The notes under the pieces: model-generated
Told to the model about the DNA's origin: nothing
Seen by the model: the letters and a program-made list of their open reading frames with translations, nothing else
Databases searched by the model: none
Program-made: the position numbers and the translations under genes
Source: Stigmatella aurantiaca
Lineage (GTDB): Bacteria; Myxococcota; Myxococcia; Myxococcales; Myxococcaceae
DNA: 55,797 nucleotides
Direction: 5' to 3'
Assembly (NCBI RefSeq): GCF_900109545.1
Contig: NZ_FOAP01000037.1
Location: 1 to 55,797, forward strand
In this document: in pieces, positions 8,925 through 17,958 of the stretch
How positions within the stretch are numbered: position 1 is the first letter of the stretch
Layout of the letters: every line of letters begins with the position of its first letter

Positions 8925-11516
8925 ATGACGAAGCTGGAAAACCCTGCAGGCGCGGAGGAGTCCATGGAAACTGCGCTGCCACAGGCCACTCACCGGGGAG
9001 CGGCCTTGCTGAAGGAAGAGTTCGGGCCAGTCTCCCGGATGCTGGGGGCTCGCTACTTCGACGGGGTGCGCTTTCCCCCCGAGTCCGAGAACGAGCTGCG
9101 GGCCCTCCACGGCCGCGGCTTCGTGGTCCACGTCATGCGCACCACCGCGTGGATCAACTTCCTCTACCTGGCCTGGGCCGTGGTGCGGCGCGAGCTGCCG
9201 CCCATCCGGGCCGTCGTCAACCTGCGGCCCTGGTTCACCCGCCCCTTCAACCGCACCCTCCAGCACGGCGCCTTCGCCGAGCGCTTCGCCGAGGCCCAGC
9301 AGCGCGGCGGCAGCGGGCTCATCTTCCTGAAGAAGACCGCGCTGATGAACGCCTCGGGCAAGGACATCGAGGACAACCCCTTCCCCGCCCTGGTCGCCAT
9401 GGCGCGCAAGGCCGACCGGCCCATCTTCTTGGTGCCGGAGCTGTTCGTCTGGGAGAAGCGCCCCGCCAGCCTCAAGCCCGGCATGATGGACATCGTGTTC
9501 GGAAGCCCCGAGGCCCCGGGCTTCCTGCACTCGCTGCTGGCCTTCTTCCGCAACTACCGGCGCGCCCAGTTCCGCATCGGCGAGCCCATCGATCTGCGGC
9601 GCTTCATCGACGAGAACCCCCAGGACTCCGACGAGGTGCTCGCCCGCAAGGTGCGCAGCTCCCTGCACCACCACCTGGCCCGGGAGACGCGCGCCGTCTT
9701 CGGCCCGCCCGCCAAGCCCGCCGAGCGCCTCATCGAGGAGACGCTCCGCGACCGGCAGCTGCACAAGTCTCTGGAGGCGCACGCCGCAGCCACCGGCCGC
9801 CGCCCCGAGAGCGTCTACCGGGAGGCCCAGCGCAACCTGGAGGCCATCGCCGCGCGGCCGAGCACCACCGCGCGCGCCTTCGCCGCCCCCCTGCTGGACT
9901 GGGTCTTCCAGCGCATCTACGACGGCATCGAGGTCGACGAGGCCGGGCTCGACCGCGCCCTCAAGGCCGCGGGCCGGGCACCCATCGTCCTGTGCCCCTC
10001 GCACAAGAGCCACGTGGACTACCTGGTGCTCAGTTGGGTGCTGTGGAACCGCGGCTACGCGGTGCCCCTGGTGGCCGCGGGCGCCAACCTCTCCTTCTTC
10101 CCGCTCGGCCCCTTCCTGCGCCGCTGCGGCGCGTTCTTCCTGCGCCGCTCCTTCAAGGGCGACCCGGTCTACTCGGAGACCTTCCAGGCCTATGTGCGCA
10201 AGCTGGTGCACGACGGCGTGCACCAGGAGTTCTTCCCCGAGGGCGGGCGCTCGCGCACCGGCAAACTGCTGCTGCCCAAGCTGGGCATGTTCACCTGGCT
10301 GGTGGAGGCGGTGCTGGCCGGGGCCCGGAATGATCTCTTCTTCGTCCCGGTCTCCATCGACTACGAGAAGGTGGTGGAGTCCGGCAGCTACTCGAAGGAG
10401 CTGGCCGGCGGGGAGAAGAAGCCCGAGGACTTCAAGGCGCTGTTGAGCACGCCCAAGGTGCTCACCGCCCAGTACGGCCGCATCCACCTCACCTTCGATG
10501 AGCCCCTGTCCCTGGTGGAGCTGATGAAGAGCCGCGGCTTGGATCCCCGCGAGCCCGTCACCGAGGAGCAGAAGAAGGGCCTGGTCCGCGCGCTGGGCAA
10601 CCGCGTCATGTACGGCATCAGCAAGGTCTCCACGGTGACGCCCCACGCGCTGGCCAGCGCCGCGCTGCTCGCCCACCGCCGCCGCGGGATTACGCAGCGG
10701 GAGCTGACCGACCGCATCACCCTGCTGCGCCGCCTCGCCGAGCAGGAGCGCACGCCCCTGTCCAAGACGCTGGACAACGCGCCGAGCGATCCCGAGACGA
10801 TGGGCGCCATCCGGGATGCCCTGCTCTCGTTCCGCTCCGACGAGATGATCCGCACCCAGCAGGCGCGCGGCGAGGTCATCTACCAGCCCGAGGACGAGCG
10901 CCGCGCGGAGCTCTCCTTCTACAAGAACACCCTGATGAACCTGGTGGCCCCGCGCAGCCTCGTGGCCAACGCGCTGCTCGCCGGGGGCACGTCCGACTCC
11001 TACGACAGCGTGAAAGCGCGCGCGCTGTTCCTCTCGCGCCTCTTCAAGGTGGAGTTCATCTACCAGGTGGGGCTCACCTTCGACACCATCTTCGCGGACA
11101 CTGTGGAGCGCATGGAGCGCCTGGGGCTGGTGCTCACCGGCACCACGCTCCAGCTCGCCCCCGAGCCGCACGCGCGCCCGGACGTCGAGTTCCTCGCGGA
11201 CCTGATGCGCGACTACCTGGAGTCCTACCTCCTGGCGGCCATGACGCTGAAGGATGTCGCCGAGGGCACGGCGTCCGACCGCAAGACGTTCGTGAAGCTC
11301 GCCATGGAGACGGGCCGCGCCGAGTTCCACGCGGGCCGCATCGGTGCCGCCGAGTCCCTGGCCAAGACGACGCTGGAGAACGCCGTGGCCTACCTGCTCG
11401 ATCAGAAGTTCCTCATCGAGGAGGACAAGAAGCTGAAGCTGGGGCCCGCGGCCCACGAGCCTGCCGCCCGGGCGCACCTCGTCAGCGAGATCCGCACCTA
11501 CCTGGTGCGGGCCTGA
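8925..11516 (+). CDS. plsB: Glycerol-3-phosphate 1-O-acyltransferase (PlsB type)
   Basis: The 863-residue protein has the length and motifs of PlsB, which acylates sn-glycerol-3-phosphate at position 1 to start phospholipid synthesis at the inner membrane. The acyltransferase blocks are present: the HX4D motif HKSHVDYL (His360, Asp365), then GAFFLRRSFKGDPVYSE, then FFPEGGRSRTGKLLLPKLGM, then FVPVSIDYEKVVE. An N-terminal extension of about 300 residues and a long C-terminal region match the bacterial family. An alternative ATG lies 13 codons downstream (8964). It follows the sensor kinase after 73 bases and converges on the Ig-like lipoprotein gene. Confidence 0.92.
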   Translation: MTKLENPAGAEESMETALPQATHRGAALLKEEFGPVSRMLGARYFDGVRFPPESENELRALHGRGFVVHVMRTTAWINFLYLAWAVVRRELPPIRAVVNLRPWFTRPFNRTLQHGAFAERFAEAQQRGGSGLIFLKKTALMNASGKDIEDNPFPALVAMARKADRPIFLVPELFVWEKRPASLKPGMMDIVFGSPEAPGFLHSLLAFFRNYRRAQFRIGEPIDLRRFIDENPQDSDEVLARKVRSSLHHHLARETRAVFGPPAKPAERLIEETLRDRQLHKSLEAHAAATGRRPESVYREAQRNLEAIAARPSTTARAFAAPLLDWVFQRIYDGIEVDEAGLDRALKAAGRAPIVLCPSHKSHVDYLVLSWVLWNRGYAVPLVAAGANLSFFPLGPFLRRCGAFFLRRSFKGDPVYSETFQAYVRKLVHDGVHQEFFPEGGRSRTGKLLLPKLGMFTWLVEAVLAGARNDLFFVPVSIDYEKVVESGSYSKELAGGEKKPEDFKALLSTPKVLTAQYGRIHLTFDEPLSLVELMKSRGLDPREPVTEEQKKGLVRALGNRVMYGISKVSTVTPHALASAALLAHRRRGITQRELTDRITLLRRLAEQERTPLSKTLDNAPSDPETMGAIRDALLSFRSDEMIRTQQARGEVIYQPEDERRAELSFYKNTLMNLVAPRSLVANALLAGGTSDSYDSVKARALFLSRLFKVEFIYQVGLTFDTIFADTVERMERLGLVLTGTTLQLAPEPHARPDVEFLADLMRDYLESYLLAAMTLKDVAEGTASDRKTFVKLAMETGRAEFHAGRIGAAESLAKTTLENAVAYLLDQKFLIEEDKKLKLGPAAHEPAARAHLVSEIRTYLVRA

Positions 11517-11529
11517 AGCCCGCGCTGTC

Positions 11530-11967
11530 TCAGGGGACGGCGCGGAAGGACGTGCGGAGCTCGTCGGGCAACGGGTTGCCCTCGTAGTCCGACAGGATCG
11601 TCCGCAACACCAGCGTGTAGGCCGTCCCGGCCGTGAAGCTGCCCGAGGCCGCGCTCACGGTGACGGTGTACGGCACGTCCCCGCGCTCGATGTCCTTGTC
11701 CCAGTCCGCGATGGCGGGCATCACGAGCCGCACGGGGATCTCGTCCGCCCCGGCGTACACCGCGATGCCGGGGCGCAGGGTGCGCTCGTCCATCAGCTCC
11801 GAGAAGGTGATGCGCACCGTTCCCCCGGCGGACACCTGGCCGTTGGCGGTGGGGTTGATGGACACCACCGAGGGGGGCTGGGTATCACGCACGGCCAGCA
11901 GCGGATCTCCAGGCTCCAGGCAGCCGCCCAGGCTCAGCGCGGCGCAGATCAGCAACGGGCGGCGCAT
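11530..11967 (-). CDS. Lipoprotein with a bacterial Ig-like (Big_5) domain
   Basis: The start chosen is the ATG at 11965-11967, which overlaps the stop codon of the cytochrome gene (TGATG) and begins a lipoprotein signal, MRRPLLICAALSLGGC. The mature part has a single Ig-like beta fold: PPSVVSINPTANGQVSAGGT, then VRITFSELMDERTL, then YTLVLRTILSDYEGNPL and a closing TSFRAVP. This pattern (things happening 'after differences', FSE.M) is typical of Big_5 domains in surface lipoproteins. The protein has 145 residues. The tight coupling to a multihaem cytochrome suggests it belongs to the same envelope complex; its role there is unknown. Confidence 0.7.
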   Translation of the reverse strand: MRRPLLICAALSLGGCLEPGDPLLAVRDTQPPSVVSINPTANGQVSAGGTVRITFSELMDERTLRPGIAVYAGADEIPVRLVMPAIADWDKDIERGDVPYTVTVSAASGSFTAGTAYTLVLRTILSDYEGNPLPDELRTSFRAVP

Positions 11968-13142
11968 CACCGGCATCCCTTCTGCGCGAGGCTGCTCTCC
12001 GAGTGGCACTTGAGGCACGCCCGGTCATTGGCCGAGGCCAGGCGCTTGCACGCGTCCTTGAAGCCGTTCGGGTGGGGGTTGATCTGCCGCCGCGTGGACA
12101 GCTCCGAGTGGCAGCTCATGCACGACTCCTCGCGGTGGCAGGAGATGCACTGGCGCATGTCGCGCGAGGCGGCGAGCCCGTGGTGCTGGGGCCCCGGCAC
12201 CTCGACCCACGTGTTGTAGTCCGGGTGCACCTTCACGTTGCGCGCGCGCAGGGTGGAGTCCGCGTCCATGCCCACGCCCGAGCGCTCGTGGCAGGCCACG
12301 CAGAAGGACTGGGCGCGGTGGCAGCTCTCGCAGCGCGAGGCATCCGTGCGCGCCTGCACCGGGTGCAGGGTGATGAAGTCGTTGGGGTGCACCGACAGGG
12401 GCTTCTGCAGCGAGTCGTGGCACTGCTGGCAGTAGGAGTCCGAGTGGCACTCCATGCACGTCTGCCGGGACACCGAGGCGCGGGTGCCGTGGTTGAACTC
12501 GAAGCGCGGCCCGTGGTCCATGCCCAGGGGGTCGCCCTGGATGGGGCGGAGGATGCCGGAGGTGAAGTTGAGCTGGAGCCGCCCCGAGGCCTGCTTCAGG
12601 TGGCAGGAGGTGCAGTCGTTGGTGAGCACGCGCCCGTCATGGCACTCGAAGCAGGTGGCCATCTTGGGCAGCTGCTGCCGGGTGGCCAGCCCCACCTTCG
12701 TCAGGTCCCCGTGGCACGCCGCGCAGTCCACCTTCTTGGCCACGTGCTCCTTGTGGCTGAAGTGCAGGTTGGCGTGCGGGAACTCCAGCTTCACCGGCTC
12801 CTTGCGCACGGTGGCGTCGAAGCCAGGGTGGCACACGGCGCACCCGGAAGGAGGATCCGTCTTCTCCCCCTTCTGAGCGGCCTCGATGTCGTGGCAGACC
12901 TCGCACTCCTCGTGGCCTGGGAGGTTGCGGTCCCGCGAGCTTTCACTGGACCGCACGGAGTCGTGGCAGGCCACGCAGTCGGCCCCCGCCGCCAGGTGCT
13001 GGCCGTGATCGAACCGCAGGGGGATGTTCTGCGCGGGGTAGATGGCGAGGCTCCGCTCGCGGCCCGAGGCGGCCCAGGCCACCCCGGTCGCGGCGAGGAG
13101 AAGGGCGAGGACGCCCAGGACGTTCCGGTGAAGGCGGTGCAT
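11967..13142 (-). CDS. Periplasmic c-type cytochrome with 13 CxxCH haem sites
   Basis: The 391-residue protein starts with a Sec signal peptide (VLGVLALLLAATGVAWAASG). It contains 13 CxxCH motifs in order: CVACH, CEVCH, CAVCH, CAACH, CFECH, CTSCH, CMECH, CQQCH, CESCH, CVACH, CISCH, CMSCH and CLKCH. Many extra His residues could act as second axial ligands, for example FDHGQHL, FSHKEH and FNHGTR. Such proteins form haem wires for electron transfer. The ATG directly follows the TAA of the upstream beta-barrel gene, and its stop overlaps the next lipoprotein gene, so three envelope genes are coupled. Haem attachment would need the Ccm system encoded at 41-49 kb. The partner and acceptor are unknown. 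Confidence 0.92.
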   Translation of the reverse strand: MHRLHRNVLGVLALLLAATGVAWAASGRERSLAIYPAQNIPLRFDHGQHLAAGADCVACHDSVRSSESSRDRNLPGHEECEVCHDIEAAQKGEKTDPPSGCAVCHPGFDATVRKEPVKLEFPHANLHFSHKEHVAKKVDCAACHGDLTKVGLATRQQLPKMATCFECHDGRVLTNDCTSCHLKQASGRLQLNFTSGILRPIQGDPLGMDHGPRFEFNHGTRASVSRQTCMECHSDSYCQQCHDSLQKPLSVHPNDFITLHPVQARTDASRCESCHRAQSFCVACHERSGVGMDADSTLRARNVKVHPDYNTWVEVPGPQHHGLAASRDMRQCISCHREESCMSCHSELSTRRQINPHPNGFKDACKRLASANDRACLKCHSESSLAQKGCR

Positions 13143-14579
13143 TTACAGATTCGCCTTGAGATCGAAGAGGAAGAAGACCTTGGTGTCCGAGTGCGAGAAC
13201 GCGTTGAAGTTCTGCTCGAGCACCAGCGACAGCCGCGCCGCCTGGCTCAACGCCCGGCTGGCCCACAGCTGCGCCCCGAAGAAGTTTCCCTGCAGCAGGG
13301 GGTTGAACGCGTCCTCGACGTTGGCCACCGACACCCGGCCATCCAGGTCCAGCAGGCCCCGGTCGAAGCTGTAGCCGCTGGTGAGGTCCACCCAGAGCTG
13401 GTCCCCGCCGTAGCCCCGGCGGTACGTCACGTCCAGCGCCGAGCGCAGGTTCCCGCGCCGCATCGACACGCCCGCGCTGCCGCCCGCGTTCACCGAGGAG
13501 GGCTCCCCTTCGGCCTCCAGCGCGTCCGCGAGCCGCAGGCTGTCGTTGACCTCGGTGTGGTAGAGGCTGGCCAGGCCCTGCACGTAGAAGCGAAAGGGGC
13601 CCACCGGGTAGAAGTCCACGCGCACCCGGCCCTCGTCGCGCGGCGCGAAGGCGAAGTAGTACCAGATGGAGTCCGCGGAGAAGACCGGGGTGAAGCGCAG
13701 CGCCTCCACGCTCACGGCGAACAGCGTCTTGTCCAGGCGCACCTGGGCGCGCACCTGCGCGGGCTGCATCTGCAGCATGTCGAAGTCCAGCCCCGCGAGC
13801 GCCGACAGGCCCAGCCCCCGGCCGTAGCGGAACTCCACCCCGGCGCGCTCCAGGTCCGTCTTCCCTTCCACCAGCGACTTGCGGTAGCCCACCGAGCCGC
13901 TGAAGCCCTTCAGGTCCTCCAGCAGGAGCTTCGCCCCGTACGTGGGCGCCAGCGCATCCAGGCTGTCATTGGCGCCCGCGACGCCCTGCTCCAGCCGGCG
14001 CGAATCGCTCTCCCGCGTTCCGTCCGGCTGGTACACGGAGGAGCCCAGGAAGCCCGCGCCCCGGACCCACAGCCCGCCGTAGACCTCGGCGCCCAGCCCC
14101 AGCCGGGACATGTACCGCAGCCGCAGCCCGTCGAAGGCCATGATGTCCATGGAGTCGACGTAGAGCTGGCGCCCCAGGCGCCCCTCGAAGCCACCCCGCG
14201 CATAGCGCGCGTAGGCGTGGAGCAGGTCCGCGTCCTCGGTCCGCAGCCCATCGATCTTCTCGGCCTCGCCCCGGGGCAGCCCCAGGTCGGCGTAGACGCG
14301 CAGGTTGGACTCGAACCCCAGGTCCTGTCCGGTGACGAGTTCGAAGGCGTTGAAACCCAGGTACTGGACGATGCGCCGGCGCGGCAACAGCACCACGTCA
14401 TCCGGCGTGGTGCCACGCCAGGCGCGAATCTGGTACGCCTGCGCTTCGGTTCTTGCCTCGATCTGATACGCAGACGCGGATGCGGTTTCAGCCAGCATCA
14501 ACACCAGCATCAGACTGACGGCCTGGGCTTGGGCCACGGCCCTTCGCATGGGCCACTGCGGTCGAGCTCGGAAGAACAT
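13143..14579 (-). CDS. Predicted outer-membrane beta-barrel protein coupled to the 13-haem cytochrome
   Basis: The ATG at 14577-14579 is used here; a second ATG at 14549 (MRRAVAQAQAVSL...) gives a more compact signal peptide ending near AETASASA. The roughly 440-residue mature protein lacks hydrophobic helices. It is made of alternating segments such as GLRLRYMSRLGLGAEVYGGL, RFYVQGLASLYHTEV and LWASRALSQAARLSLVLEQN, as expected for a barrel. The last residues are FFLFDLKANL, a beta-strand-like end, although without a terminal aromatic. The gene abuts the multihaem cytochrome without spacing. This recalls porin-cytochrome pairs (MtrAB, OmbB/OmaB), although I recognise no family signature. It is divergent from the CPBP gene across about 50 bases. 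Confidence 0.6.
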   Translation of the reverse strand: MFFRARPQWPMRRAVAQAQAVSLMLVLMLAETASASAYQIEARTEAQAYQIRAWRGTTPDDVVLLPRRRIVQYLGFNAFELVTGQDLGFESNLRVYADLGLPRGEAEKIDGLRTEDADLLHAYARYARGGFEGRLGRQLYVDSMDIMAFDGLRLRYMSRLGLGAEVYGGLWVRGAGFLGSSVYQPDGTRESDSRRLEQGVAGANDSLDALAPTYGAKLLLEDLKGFSGSVGYRKSLVEGKTDLERAGVEFRYGRGLGLSALAGLDFDMLQMQPAQVRAQVRLDKTLFAVSVEALRFTPVFSADSIWYYFAFAPRDEGRVRVDFYPVGPFRFYVQGLASLYHTEVNDSLRLADALEAEGEPSSVNAGGSAGVSMRRGNLRSALDVTYRRGYGGDQLWVDLTSGYSFDRGLLDLDGRVSVANVEDAFNPLLQGNFFGAQLWASRALSQAARLSLVLEQNFNAFSHSDTKVFFLFDLKANL

Positions 14580-14630
14580 CAAGATGGCGGCATTATAGAG
14601 ATCCGGCGTTTGGACTGTTCATAAGTTTTC

Positions 14631-15776
14631 ATGAGTTTTTCTCCCGCACCCGAGGTGTTTCCGGTGGACGAGTCTCCCCCTCCGGCGTCCATGAGCCCGC
14701 TGGGGGTGGCCCTGGTGGGCCTGGGGCTCGTGCTCTGCCTGTTCCTCACCGCCGGCGCGGGCAGCCAGCTGCTCAACGCGGCCTTTGGCCTGTGGTTCTC
14801 GGAGCTCTTCGTCTTCCTGGGCGCCGCCTGGGTGCTCCTGCGCGCCACCCGTCACGAGCCTGTGTCGTACACGGGCTTACGGCCCTTGGCGTGGGCCCCC
14901 GCGGCCTTCGGCTTCGCGCTGGGTGTGGCCAACTTCTTCGCCCTCGTGGCCCCCATCCAGTTCGCCGCCCAGTCCCTGGCGCCCGAGTGGCTGCGGCAGA
15001 TGTTCGACGGCAGCCGGATCTTCGAGGGCCAATTCCCGGTGGAGCTGGCCGTCCTGCTGGTGGGGGTCTCCGTCGCGGCCCCCGTCTGCGAGGAGTTCTT
15101 CTTCCGGGGGCTGATCCAGAAGGGCCTGCTCGCGTCGTCCCTGTCGCGGGCCGGGGCCGTGGGCGTGACGGCGGTGGTGTTCAGCGCGTTCCACCTGGAT
15201 CCGGTGGGCTTCATGGCCCGGGTCGAGCTGGGCGTGCTGTTCGGGCTGCTGCGGCTCTACACCGGCTCGCTGTGGCCCGGGATTCTCGCGCACTCGGCCA
15301 ACAACGTCGTCTCCTCCGTCCTGTTTCTCCTCGCCCGGGAGTTCGATGAGGGGGGCATGGACGAGCGCCCGCCGGTCCAGGGCGTCCTGCTGATCATGCT
15401 GCTGGGATGGGGGGCGCTGGCGGGGCTGATCGCGCTCGCGCGCAAGCACCCCGCCCTGTGGGGGGCCCGGCAGGAGCCACTCCAGGCGCCCAGCCCGGAC
15501 CGGCCGCTGGTCCGGTGGGCCCTGCCCTGGGTCCTGGGCGCGACGCTGTCCCTGGGCGGCCTGGCGCTCGTGGACATGACCGGCATCCGGCTGAACATGA
15601 TCGACATGAAGCAGCCCCTGCCGAGGCTGAAGGACGATGCGCCCGATGCGCTCCATGCCGAGCGCGCCAGCCTGCTGCAGCTCCGGGCCGAGGTTCGAAG
15701 CGGGCGCGCCCCGCTCCAGGCCTACGCGGAGGAGCGTGCCCAGCAAGCCCTCCGGCACCGCGAGCAGGAGCCCTGA
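14631..15776 (+). CDS. CPBP-family intramembrane metalloprotease
   Basis: The 381-residue polytopic membrane protein carries the CPBP/Rce1 signature. EEFFFRGLIQKG (about residues 155-166) supplies the glutamate pair, FSAFHLDPVGF the second metal-ligand motif, and ILAHSANNVVSS the third. About eight hydrophobic segments are visible, with the catalytic motifs in the central ones. Bacterial members process or bind membrane substrates, often in bacteriocin self-protection or signalling. A hydrophilic C-terminal tail (about 325-381) rich in Arg and Glu follows the last segments. The gene stands alone on the plus strand, divergent from the barrel gene and convergent with the OB-like gene. Confidence 0.85.
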   Translation: MSFSPAPEVFPVDESPPPASMSPLGVALVGLGLVLCLFLTAGAGSQLLNAAFGLWFSELFVFLGAAWVLLRATRHEPVSYTGLRPLAWAPAAFGFALGVANFFALVAPIQFAAQSLAPEWLRQMFDGSRIFEGQFPVELAVLLVGVSVAAPVCEEFFFRGLIQKGLLASSLSRAGAVGVTAVVFSAFHLDPVGFMARVELGVLFGLLRLYTGSLWPGILAHSANNVVSSVLFLLAREFDEGGMDERPPVQGVLLIMLLGWGALAGLIALARKHPALWGARQEPLQAPSPDRPLVRWALPWVLGATLSLGGLALVDMTGIRLNMIDMKQPLPRLKDDAPDALHAERASLLQLRAEVRSGRAPLQAYAEERAQQALRHREQEP

Positions 15777-15791: not shown

Positions 15792-16007
15792 CTACTTGAA
15801 GCGGTAGGTGGAGACGTTGAAGACCGGGCCCGACATGCCGATGGTCATCACGTCGTGATCGACCTGGCCTTCCACCTCGACGAGCTGGCCGTCCTTCTTG
15901 ATCTTCCGGTCGCCTCCGGCGAGCTGGTAGGTGCGGCCGTCATCGGCCTCCAGCACCCACACGCCCCCTTCGAGGTCGCGGTAGACGACACGCCCGGTCA
16001 GCTTCAT
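15792..16007 (-). CDS. Small OB-fold-like protein
   Basis: This 71-residue protein reads MKLTGRVVYRDLEGGVWVLE, then DDGRTYQLAGGDRKIKKDGQ, then VEVEGQVDHDVMTIGMSGPV, ending FNVSTYRFK. The strand order and the VEVEGQVD segment look like a small OB fold. No catalytic residue or signal peptide is visible. Its ATG overlaps the stop codon of the upstream subtilase gene (ATGA at 16004-16007), so the two are translated together. Its role is unknown; binding to the protease or a shared ligand is possible. The gene is real by context and codon use, although short. Confidence 0.7.
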   Translation of the reverse strand: MKLTGRVVYRDLEGGVWVLEADDGRTYQLAGGDRKIKKDGQLVEVEGQVDHDVMTIGMSGPVFNVSTYRFK

Positions 16008-17797
16008 ACCGACTCCTTCTTGAGCATCGCGCGGGCGATGAAGACACAAATGACGGTATTCACCACCAGCCAGGGCACCGCCAGGAAGGTGAAGGGCATG
16101 TACGCGAGCCCCGGCGCCTTGGCCCACGCCGCATAGGCCAGGAAGCCCGCGAAGCCGAGCGACAGGCCGCCCAGGGCGGGCCTCAGTCCCCGGAACTTGA
16201 TGGCGAAGAAGGACAGCACCAGGGGGATGAGCGCGCTGTAGAAGACCGGGTTGGCCAGCTTGCCCCGGCCGAAGATGATGCGCTGCCAGTCCGGAATGGG
16301 CAGCGACACCGCGTTCACCACGTCCCCCGCCACCCCCGAGGCACCGCCGAACCAGGAGCGGACGAAGAACACGCCCACCGTGGCCAGGGCCAGCGTCACC
16401 AGGAAGCTCGGCGTGGCGAGGATGTTGAAGTAGCCCGGCCGCTCCCGGCTCCGCAGGGTCAGCAGCACGAGCGCCAGCAGCGCCAGCGCCCACCACGCCG
16501 CGGGCCAGGGAATGAGGGCGCCCCCGCCCAGGGCATCCAGGGACTTCTGCGCGTTGAGGAGCCCATGCCCGTACTGGTCCGTGCGCTCCTGGCCGTTGAC
16601 CCGGACCGCCCCCGCGTAGAGCGCCTGCTCCACGTCGTCCGGCCCCTGGGCCCCCGCCGCGTAGAGCAGCGCCGCCACCGCCGCCACGTGCGGGGTGGCC
16701 ATGCTGGTGCCCTGGAACGAAGCGTAGATGGACTGCGACGGGTCGCGCGGATCAATCGTGTTCTGCAGAATGCCGCCCTGGTCGCCCTGGCGCTTGTCGC
16801 CACCCGGCGCCGCGATATCCAGCTCCTTGCCATAGGAGGAGTACGGTGCCAGCGCCCCATTGGGGCCCACCGCCGAGACCGCCACCACGCCCGCATAGGC
16901 CGCGGGGAACTCGACGCGGGGACGGGCGGCGTTGCCCGCGGCGGCTACCACGGTGACGCCCTTCTTGCGCGCATACTCCACCGCCGAGGCCATGGCCTGC
17001 GAGTGCCCACCGCCACCCAGCGACATGTTGATGACCTTGGCGCCCTTGTCCGCCGCGAAGCGGATGGCATCCGTGATGTCCGCCGACGTGCCGCTGCCAA
17101 AGTGGTTGAGCACCTTCACCGGCATCAGCGTGGCCTCGAAGGCCACCCCCGCCACGCCCTGGCCGTTGTTCGTCGCCTGGGCGATGGTGCCCGCCACGTG
17201 CGTGCCATGTCCATGGTCGTCGTTGGCGTGCGCGTCGTCGTTCACGAAGTCATAGCCCGGAACGAACTTCACGCCCTTCAGGTCGGGCACCTGCTTGAAG
17301 TCCTCGTAGTCCTCGTAGGCGATGCCCGTGTCGATGACGGCCACCACCACCCCTTTGCCCCGGTTGGAATCCCAGGCCTTGGGCATGCCGATCATCTGCA
17401 GGTTCCACTGCTTGCCGTAGTCCGGATCGTTCGGCGCGTAGCTGCTCCGGTACGACATCAGCGGCTCGGCGGCCTCCACGGCCGGGTGCTGGCGGATGCG
17501 CGCCAGCGCCCCCTCCACGTCATCCACGCTGACCGCGACCGTGAGCCCATCGTCCAGGCTCTCCACGGAGTTGAACTCCAGGTCCACGCCCCAGTCGGCC
17601 TCCCAGGCGTCGAACTGCTCCTTCTTGGTGCCATCCTTGAAGTCCACCACGATGGCGCCGGGCACCACGCTCTCCCCCTCGGCCAATTCCGGGGACACGG
17701 CCGTGGACGGCTCGCGCTGCCCGGGCTGGGCGGTACAGGCCATGGCCGCACCCAGCATCACCCCCACTACCGCTCTCGCCAGGGTCCATCGCACCAT
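16004..17797 (-). CDS. Subtilisin-family (S8) serine protease, lipoprotein-like, with C-terminal membrane segments
   Basis: The start at 17797 is chosen because AGGAG lies seven bases before this ATG and the signal peptide begins there (MVRWTLARAVVGVMLGAAMAC). The Cys in GAAMAC at about residue 21 is a likely lipid attachment site. The catalytic triad is complete: Asp in VVVAVIDTGIAY, His in DDHGHGTHVAGT, and Ser in FQGTSMATPHVAA. The oxyanion Asn is in VVAAAGNAARP. A propeptide-like region precedes the protease core. After the core, about five hydrophobic segments (from WPAAWWALALLALVLL onward) form an unusual membrane domain of about 170 residues. The protease may cleave envelope proteins. 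It is coupled to the OB-like gene. Confidence 0.87.
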   Translation of the reverse strand: MVRWTLARAVVGVMLGAAMACTAQPGQREPSTAVSPELAEGESVVPGAIVVDFKDGTKKEQFDAWEADWGVDLEFNSVESLDDGLTVAVSVDDVEGALARIRQHPAVEAAEPLMSYRSSYAPNDPDYGKQWNLQMIGMPKAWDSNRGKGVVVAVIDTGIAYEDYEDFKQVPDLKGVKFVPGYDFVNDDAHANDDHGHGTHVAGTIAQATNNGQGVAGVAFEATLMPVKVLNHFGSGTSADITDAIRFAADKGAKVINMSLGGGGHSQAMASAVEYARKKGVTVVAAAGNAARPRVEFPAAYAGVVAVSAVGPNGALAPYSSYGKELDIAAPGGDKRQGDQGGILQNTIDPRDPSQSIYASFQGTSMATPHVAAVAALLYAAGAQGPDDVEQALYAGAVRVNGQERTDQYGHGLLNAQKSLDALGGGALIPWPAAWWALALLALVLLTLRSRERPGYFNILATPSFLVTLALATVGVFFVRSWFGGASGVAGDVVNAVSLPIPDWQRIIFGRGKLANPVFYSALIPLVLSFFAIKFRGLRPALGGLSLGFAGFLAYAAWAKAPGLAYMPFTFLAVPWLVVNTVICVFIARAMLKKESV

Positions 17798-17958
17798 TGG
17801 GGTACTCCTCATGAGCACAGGGCACACCTTCGCCATCTCCTACGAACGCGTGGCGAAACGATTGGGCCTAAAGCGCAGTCTGACCGCTCTGCGGGCTGGT
17901 AGGCAAACGCCCCTGCCCTCTTAAAGTTCAGTAAAACCGGGAGGTTGTACGGCATCGG

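What the first reader, a model, noticed from the sequence alone, without database searches (positions are those of the whole stretch)
11530..14579. Possible porin-cytochrome electron conduit: outer-membrane barrel, 13-haem cytochrome and Ig-like lipoprotein
Seen: three envelope genes without spacing or with overlapping codons; the middle one has 13 CxxCH motifs. Known: MtrAB and OmbB/OmaB-type pairs join a barrel to a multihaem cytochrome and carry electrons through the outer membrane. Inference: this operon may be a comparable conduit in an organism not considered a metal reducer.
Basis: partly seen in the sequence, partly recalled or inferred. Interest (0 to 1): 0.66.

Follow-up and report, generated by a model that had tools for sequence, protein, structure and literature searches.

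The report
Barrel plus 13-haem cytochrome electron conduit
A fruiting, predatory soil bacterium carries a conserved three-gene unit that looks like a wire for passing electrons through its outer membrane, related to one predicted in the metal-breathing genus Anaeromyxobacter, and relatives hold broken, fossil and empty versions of it.

Summary
On the minus strand lie an outer-membrane barrel (22 predicted strands), a cytochrome with 13 CxxCH motifs and a short Ig-like (Big_5) lipoprotein, with stop/start codons touching or overlapping. The cytochrome has exactly 13 further invariant histidines (16 of 16 sequences), so its haems are probably all bis-His. In 195 Myxococcota genomes the cytochrome subfamily was found in 51; 50 of these also have a barrel match (one broken), 48 directly adjacent. 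Both proteins are homologous, with clean controls, to a barrel/12-haem pair in Anaeromyxobacter-like genomes, which fits the two-gene "Pcc" clusters published for that genus (Shi 2014). Both trees split into the same two subfamilies at 100/100. It is not Mtr-type.

Most likely it is a trans-outer-membrane electron conduit: a sister subfamily of the Anaeromyxobacter Pcc with one more haem, no lipid anchor on the cytochrome and a separate non-haem lipoprotein. Complex formation, electron flow, direction and partners are untested; the cytochrome model failed. Unexpected: in a related genus (probably Myxococcus) the operon's locus is intact in 12 of 27 genomes, broken in 1, a fossil in 7 and empty or nearly so in 7.

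The parts
13143..14582 (-). outer-membrane beta-barrel gene (479 aa from a conserved TTG start; N-terminal signal peptide read by eye); 22 predicted strands
   Evidence: start; AF2; barrel folds in PDB; hydropathy of the two strand faces
11967..13142 (-). 13-haem c-type cytochrome gene (391 aa), signal peptide without a lipobox Cys (read by eye); 13 CxxCH and 13 invariant further His
   Evidence: (PF14522 E 2.4e-16, PF22113 E 2e-13)
12003..12977 (-). stretch of the 13 CxxCH motifs; first bases 12977, 12905, 12842, 12725, 12653, 12614, 12458, 12431, 12332, 12302, 12149, 12122, 12017
11530..11967 (-). Ig-like (Big_5) lipoprotein gene, 145 aa, lipobox-like LGGC, no CxxCH; start overlaps the cytochrome stop
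14592..14597 (-). TATAAT, -10-like, 9 bases between it and the TTG start of the barrel gene
   Evidence: present in the window and L005-L011, 8 of 8; read by eye, no transcript data
8925..11516 (+). plsB-like acyltransferase gene, convergent neighbour: landmark of the locus, not part of the system
14631..15776 (+). CPBP/Rce1-like intramembrane protease gene, divergent neighbour: landmark of the locus, not part of the system

Best explanation
A trans-outer-membrane electron conduit. The 22-strand barrel holds the 13-haem cytochrome in its lumen; the chain of bis-His haems carries electrons between periplasm and cell surface without a surface cytochrome encoded beside it; the Ig-like lipoprotein is a non-haem accessory (cap, anchor or assembly factor). 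Shown here: gene order and coupling, barrel prediction, 13 haem motifs with 13 invariant further His, co-occurrence of barrel and cytochrome, homology of both to an Anaeromyxobacter-type barrel/12-haem pair. Inferred: insertion of cytochrome in barrel, haem ligation, side and role of the lipoprotein. Unknown: direction, periplasmic and inner-membrane partners, and the outside substrate (redox-active metabolites, Fe(III) or humics are natural candidates).
For: Cytochrome subfamily (E at most 1e-60, cut chosen at the gap in the list) in 51 of 195 Myxococcota genomes; barrel match in 50 of those 51, including the broken barrel of G144; on one contig under 2 kb apart in 48 of 50. Thirteen non-motif His invariant in 16 of 16 sequences, equal to the haem number; in the 12 Anaeromyxobacter-type sequences 12 non-motif His for the 12 shared motifs, counted by eye from the invariant list. 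22 strands, within the 18-22 reported for Pcc barrels. hhalign barrel vs Anaeromyxobacter-type barrel E 7.8e-14 (A2) and 1.6e-21 over 401 columns (A4); cytochrome vs cytochrome E 8.3e-51; reversed and column-shuffled controls at most 4.8% probability. Same two-clade split, 100/100, in both trees. Published reasoning that a 12-14-haem cytochrome plus barrel could span the membrane without a surface cytochrome (PMC4245776), and a published cluster in which a rhodanese-like lipoprotein stands in place of the surface cytochrome (extHIJKL; PMC6148476, passages).
Against: No physical test of complex or electron flow. The AF2 model of the cytochrome failed (pLDDT 41.9), so a rod shape is not shown; no complex was modelled. 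In 3 of 51 genomes the cytochrome lies apart from a barrel: G011 and G024 have the two on different contigs with other genes upstream of the cytochrome, and in G008 no barrel was found. With 25 more divergent sequences H77, H320 and H357 are no longer invariant. No NapC/NirT and no OmcA/MtrC-family match in the genome. Relatives lost the operon and persist, so it is dispensable. In the paper read, function of the Anaeromyxobacter pair is itself a prediction.
Confidence: 0.77

Rival explanations
1. The cytochrome stays in the periplasm as an electron store or reductase subunit, and the barrel is an ordinary channel that lets its substrate in; no electrons cross the outer membrane.
For: Foldseek and VIA place the barrel near substrate channels and receptors (Occ porins, TonB-dependent receptors), though this is the general barrel fold; the cytochrome has an ordinary-looking signal peptide without lipobox (by eye); the cytochrome gene lies apart from the barrel in G011 and G024.
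Against: Near-strict co-occurrence (50 of 51), same two clades in both trees, homology to a Pcc-type pair; 13 invariant His for 13 haems leave no obvious open catalytic site.
Confidence: 0.13
2. The barrel is an export pore that puts the cytochrome (and the lipoprotein) on the cell surface, where it acts as a free redox protein.
For: First VIA row is an usher pore (3ohn_B, Z 15.4), tied with unrelated barrels; an Ig-like lipoprotein lies beside it.
Against: Ushers have plug and periplasmic domains for which this 479-aa protein has no room (recalled); the ties show only a shared barrel fold; the homologues are porin-cytochrome pairs.
Confidence: 0.05
3. It is a conduit, but for iron or redox-metabolite chemistry at the surface (e.g. 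reductive release of iron, or recycling of secreted redox-active compounds) rather than for respiration. A sub-case of the best explanation.
For: The clade is known as aerobic predators (recalled); no MtrB-, NapC- or OmcA/MtrC-family match was found; the operon is dispensable in relatives.
Against: No iron-uptake or biosynthesis gene sits in the operon; neighbours are plsB and a CPBP protease; no expression data were available.
Confidence: 0.35

Closest known systems
Anaeromyxobacter two-gene Pcc (Group IV of Shi et al. 2014, PMC4245776)
   Same: Barrel gene followed directly by a 12-haem cytochrome gene with no surface cytochrome gene; in the loci read the chosen start codons overlap the barrel stop; both proteins homologous to the window's.
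   Different: Separate subfamily in both trees (100/100); window cytochrome has 13 haems (some A7 members too: L035, L036, L043, L045) and 391 aa; it has no lipobox Cys, whereas 12 of 12 rows of A7 have a Cys at the end of the signal peptide (by eye); the window adds an Ig-like lipoprotein gene.
OmbB-OmaB-OmcB and the ext conduits of Geobacter sulfurreducens
   Same: Barrel (18-22 strands) plus periplasmic multihaem cytochrome in one cluster; extHIJKL has a non-haem lipoprotein in place of a surface cytochrome (PMC6148476, passages).
   Different: 8-haem OmaB plus 12-haem surface OmcB; rhodanese-type, not Ig-type, lipoprotein in ext; direct sequence comparison not made here.
MtrAB / MtoAB / PioAB
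   Same: Architecture: multihaem cytochrome with a barrel.
   Different: No PF11854 match in the barrel or the 30 relatives scanned; 22 strands rather than the 28 predicted in PMC4245776 (26 in the solved structure, recalled); 13 rather than 10 haems.

Membership tests
[quoted passage not shown]
   22 strands in the AF2 model (moderate confidence); range from PMC4245776
Pcc (porin-cytochrome) clusters, Shi 2014 sense | periplasmic c-cytochrome with 5-14 CX2CH, gene beside the barrel gene | tested here: met
   13 CxxCH, adjacent; periplasmic location only from a signal peptide read by eye
Pcc (porin-cytochrome) clusters, Shi 2014 sense | homology to a published Pcc pair | tested here: inconclusive
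   homology to the Anaeromyxobacter-type pair is clear, but that this is the published cluster rests on genome size, haem number and length; OmbB/OmaB of Geobacter not compared
Pcc (porin-cytochrome) clusters, Shi 2014 sense | outer-membrane multihaem cytochrome gene in the cluster (in most; absent in Anaeromyxobacter and Kuenenia, so not required) | tested here: not met
   third gene has no CxxCH
Pcc (porin-cytochrome) clusters, Shi 2014 sense | electron transfer through the outer membrane | not testable with these tools
   needs proteoliposomes or whole-cell assays
Mtr/Mto/Pio | barrel of the MtrB_PioB family (PF11854) | tested here: not met
   no hit for the window barrel at E 1 nor for any of 31 A4 members at E 0.1, where one member alone matched Alginate_exp at 0.0085; 0 of 39 genomes (where no control genome passed the cut-off, so that search's sensitivity is unproven)
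Mtr/Mto/Pio | decahaem MtrA/DmsE-type cytochrome | tested here: not met
   13 haems; TIGR03508 10.3 bits against a cut-off of 192.2
Mtr/Mto/Pio | barrel of 26-28 strands | tested here: not met
   22 strands, model confidence moderate
Mtr/Mto/Pio | structural match of the barrel to solved MtrB | tested here: inconclusive
   MtrB not among the 50 rows shown; absence from the list excludes nothing

The most novel reading that the evidence does not exclude
Across Myxococcota there is an old barrel/13-haem conduit, kept by aerobic fruiting predators not known to respire metals, with a non-haem Ig-like lipoprotein as its outer part; it serves surface redox chemistry of their social, predatory life (secreted redox compounds, iron, or electron exchange with prey or sister cells), and is being lost in one branch of a related genus (probably Myxococcus).
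Probability: 0.3. Interest if true: 0.75.

Novelty: new variant of a known kind. Interest (0 to 1): 0.52.

Why it matters
Trans-outer-membrane electron conduits are mostly studied in metal- and electrode-respiring bacteria. A constrained, single-copy conduit in fruiting predators of the Stigmatella/Hyalangium clade, and in other Myxococcota, would mean such wires have uses beyond metal respiration. Because intact, broken, fossil and empty versions of one locus exist in close relatives, the function can be tested by comparing natural plus and minus strains. The 13-haem design without a surface cytochrome beside it also tests the 2014 idea that a longer haem wire alone can span the outer membrane.

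Tried and rejected
Mtr-type membership: rejected. Soluble pentahaem subunit of alternative complex III as the identity of the cytochrome: PDB sequence matches 6lod and 8k9e cover only residues 13-170 (that these two are such subunits is recalled); a separate 5-haem gene of that kind lies at G000:C8.

AlphaFold of the cytochrome gave pLDDT 41.9 and was not used further. Foldseek and VIA on the barrel return general barrels only (VIA rows shown, Z 13.6-15.4); MtrB is not in the rows shown, which excludes nothing. A quinol-oxidising partner was sought only as NapC/NirT: none in the genome (the control rang in E. coli); CbcL and ImcH types were not searched. PF14522 hits in the genome (9 places, two of them in this cytochrome) were looked at only by haem count. 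Lumen-facing strand residues are a little more conserved than lipid-facing ones (entropy 1.46 vs 1.76, p 0.001), and the two faces differ by more than 1.5 hydropathy units in 16 of 22 strands; the faces were assigned by hydropathy afterwards and no control barrel family was run, so this is weak support. Papers: searches in the open PMC library; their listings show no paper about this operon in Stigmatella, Hyalangium or Myxococcus (Stigmatella plus multiheme, listed none; the other genera were not searched by name beyond 'Myxococc' and 'Myxococcota'); most listed papers were not opened, and subscription papers and preprints are not covered. Opened: PMC4245776 (sections 6 and 8 and passages), PMC6148476 and PMC11495043 (passages). 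Limits of counts: the genome searches scored only 8 or 10 first-look candidates per genome, so absences are not proof. Dropped rows: alignment A1 had rows on the wrong strand and was replaced by A3. The seven remnant genomes were set aside before the Fisher count. ORF picking favoured wrong-frame ORFs at this G+C and was superseded by profile searches. One search used 33 pairs, not every pair found; L035 was left out of A6 because its barrel is cut by the contig end. Of 16 g43 genomes three loci were read. No alignment of the lipoprotein family was made (one search failed).
Full report
Observation. The minus strand of 11530-14582 holds three touching genes: barrel (14582-13143), cytochrome (13142-11967, 391 aa, 13 CxxCH) and Ig-like lipoprotein (11967-11530). 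Barrel stop TAA and cytochrome ATG abut; cytochrome TGA and lipoprotein ATG overlap. The window is contig C37 of a 9.37 Mb genome. A genome of the same genus (G006) has a contig of the same length (741,390) as the Hyalangium versicolor record that matched the cytochrome at 79%, so the organism belongs to the Stigmatella/Hyalangium clade (Stigmatella recalled from the size of G005).

Proteins. The cytochrome matches PF14522 (E 2.4e-16) and, in part, PF22113 (MtrC/MtrF domains II/IV, E 2e-13); the lipoprotein matches PF13205 Big_5 (E 2e-10); the barrel matches no Pfam or NCBIfam family at E 1 and no PDB sequence at E 10. AlphaFold2 on 31 aligned barrels gives 22 strands (mean pLDDT 73.8, pTM 0.66). 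PDB fold matches are general large barrels: ushers, TonB-dependent receptors, Occ porins. The cytochrome model failed.

Haem ligands. In 16 aligned cytochromes (42-98% identity to the window) all 13 CxxCH are kept, and exactly 13 further His are invariant: positions 46, 49, 77, 130, 133, 210, 218, 252, 260, 306, 320, 321, 357. With 25 sequences down to 31% identity, H77, H320 and H357 are no longer invariant (one row, L088, is cut short). The simplest reading is 13 bis-His haems, that is electron transfer and not catalysis (inference).

Distribution. A profile of the barrel finds 57 of 195 Myxococcota genomes; a profile of the cytochrome finds 96 of 195 at E 1e-30, of which 51 form a close subfamily (weakest 5e-66; next match 1.7e-51). 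Fifty genomes have both, G144 with a broken barrel; 48 of the 50 have them on one contig under 2 kb apart, two (G011, G024) on different contigs; one (G008) has the cytochrome only; seven have short barrel remnants only. With those seven set aside the table is 50/0/1/144 (Fisher p 5e-46; genomes are related, so p is not a test of independent events, and only 8-10 candidates per genome were scored). Seventeen of the 50 lie outside the window's family; of these, ten loci were read (L033, L087-L095) and each has a cytochrome with 12-14 CxxCH directly after the barrel. The Ig-like lipoprotein was not found after the cytochrome in L087-L095 (one BLAST match lies upstream of the barrel in L093; a fast-evolving lipoprotein could be missed). 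Within the family it was seen in L003, L031, L032, L034, L079, L080 and L084-L086, not in L029. It looks like an addition at family level.

Relation to known conduits. The weaker cytochrome hits include complete genomes of Anaeromyxobacter size (names recalled from genome length; G044 has 5,029,329 bases). Of 15 such loci read, 12 show a barrel-profile match upstream of the cytochrome on the same strand (two of them weak, L041 E 0.004 and L044 E 0.25) and three do not (L038, L046, and L042, whose contig begins just before the cytochrome). With the start codons I chose, cytochrome start and barrel stop overlap in the 12. Alignments of 11 such barrels and 12 such cytochromes match the window families: barrel E 7.8e-14 (280 columns) or 1.6e-21 (401 columns) depending on the query set; cytochrome E 8.3e-51 over 313 columns; one reversed and five column-shuffled controls per comparison gave at most 4.8% probability. 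Shi et al. 2014 (PMC4245776; sections 6 and 8 read, other passages seen) describe two-gene pcc clusters in Anaeromyxobacter and Kuenenia with 12 and 14 haems respectively, 338-344 aa, and no surface cytochrome, and Pcc barrels of 18-22 strands; L096 encodes a 12-haem cytochrome of 344-345 aa. Trees of 33 matched barrels and cytochromes both separate the 11 Anaeromyxobacter-type rows from the 22 window-type rows with 100/100 support; finer branching agrees in part. The window type is therefore a sister subfamily. It differs by the separate lipoprotein, by lack of a lipobox Cys in the cytochrome, and usually by a 13th haem (four of the 12 A7 members also have 13 motifs). A rhodanese-like lipoprotein in place of the surface cytochrome has been described for the Geobacter extHIJKL cluster, and the outer lipoprotein is the part most often replaced there (PMC6148476, passages).

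Erosion in a related genus. The operon sits between plsB and a CPBP protease gene. Of 27 genomes of genus g23 (probably Myxococcus; G145 has 10,350,586 bases, a size I recall for M. stipitatus), 12 have a full-length barrel hit and the cytochrome; one (G144) has a barrel in two frames with about 110 profile positions unmatched beside an intact 13-haem cytochrome and a lipoprotein match; seven have short barrel remnants and no cytochrome hit; seven have no barrel hit. In those last seven the plsB-CPBP gap is 57-765 bases; G141 keeps a 14-residue barrel match (E 4e-5), two show only weak lipoprotein matches (E 0.004 and 0.009), four nothing. Among the remnants, G153 keeps pieces of all three genes in an 828-base gap, and G143 keeps most of the lipoprotein. 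At the same locus three g43 loci (probably Corallococcus), two g17 and two g8 genomes have plsB beside CPBP without the operon; since four other g8 genomes have it, loss is the simplest reading there. Assembly error was not excluded for G144.

Constraint. dN/dS is 0.12-0.15 for barrel and cytochrome and 0.22-0.35 for the lipoprotein against G004/G005, higher but below 1 against more distant relatives; the lipoprotein has the highest dN in six of seven comparisons.

Mechanism and limits. Best reading: a barrel-held haem wire through the outer membrane. Shown are anatomy, co-occurrence, constraint and homology; the path of electrons, the partners and the purpose are inferred or unknown. No MtrB-type barrel (39 genomes, this one included), NapC/NirT or OmcA/MtrC family member (this genome) was found; for PF11854 and TIGR03507 no control genome passed the cut-off, so those absences are softer.

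Verdict.

Noticed in passing
L076-L083, L107-L113 (genus g23), between plsB and CPBP: Graded decay of the operon: broken, fossil and erased states at one locus in close relatives.
   Followed up: yes
window 14592-14597, minus strand: TATAAT with 9 bases between it and the conserved TTG start in 8 of 8 sequences, which would give a nearly leaderless transcript starting at TTG.
   Followed up: partly
L029, L031, L034 (G024, G011, G008): Cytochrome (with Ig-like lipoprotein in L031 and L034) sits away from the barrel; a proline-rich ORF lies just upstream of it in L031 and L034, and a similar one about 2.5 kb upstream in L029. In G011 and G024 the barrel stays by CPBP.
   Followed up: partly
L040 10185-11783; L041 2332-4137; L046 1-1401: ORFs with 20-23 CxxCH near Anaeromyxobacter-type cytochromes, possibly parts of larger conduits.
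   Followed up: no
L045 1485-8493: Three consecutive multihaem frames (13, 11 and 10 CxxCH) with a barrel match: a candidate conduit with further cytochromes.
   Followed up: no
window cytochrome residues C365 and C390: Two non-haem Cys near the C terminus, C365 invariant in 16 of 16, a possible disulfide.
   Followed up: no
window 16004-17836, minus strand: Subtilase with a C-terminal DUF5942 region, kept at this locus in relatives with and without the conduit operon.
   Followed up: no
L120 and L121 (G000:C1, C17): Two similar ORFs of about 610 aa, each with 4 CxxCH, in the window's genome; function not examined.
   Followed up: no
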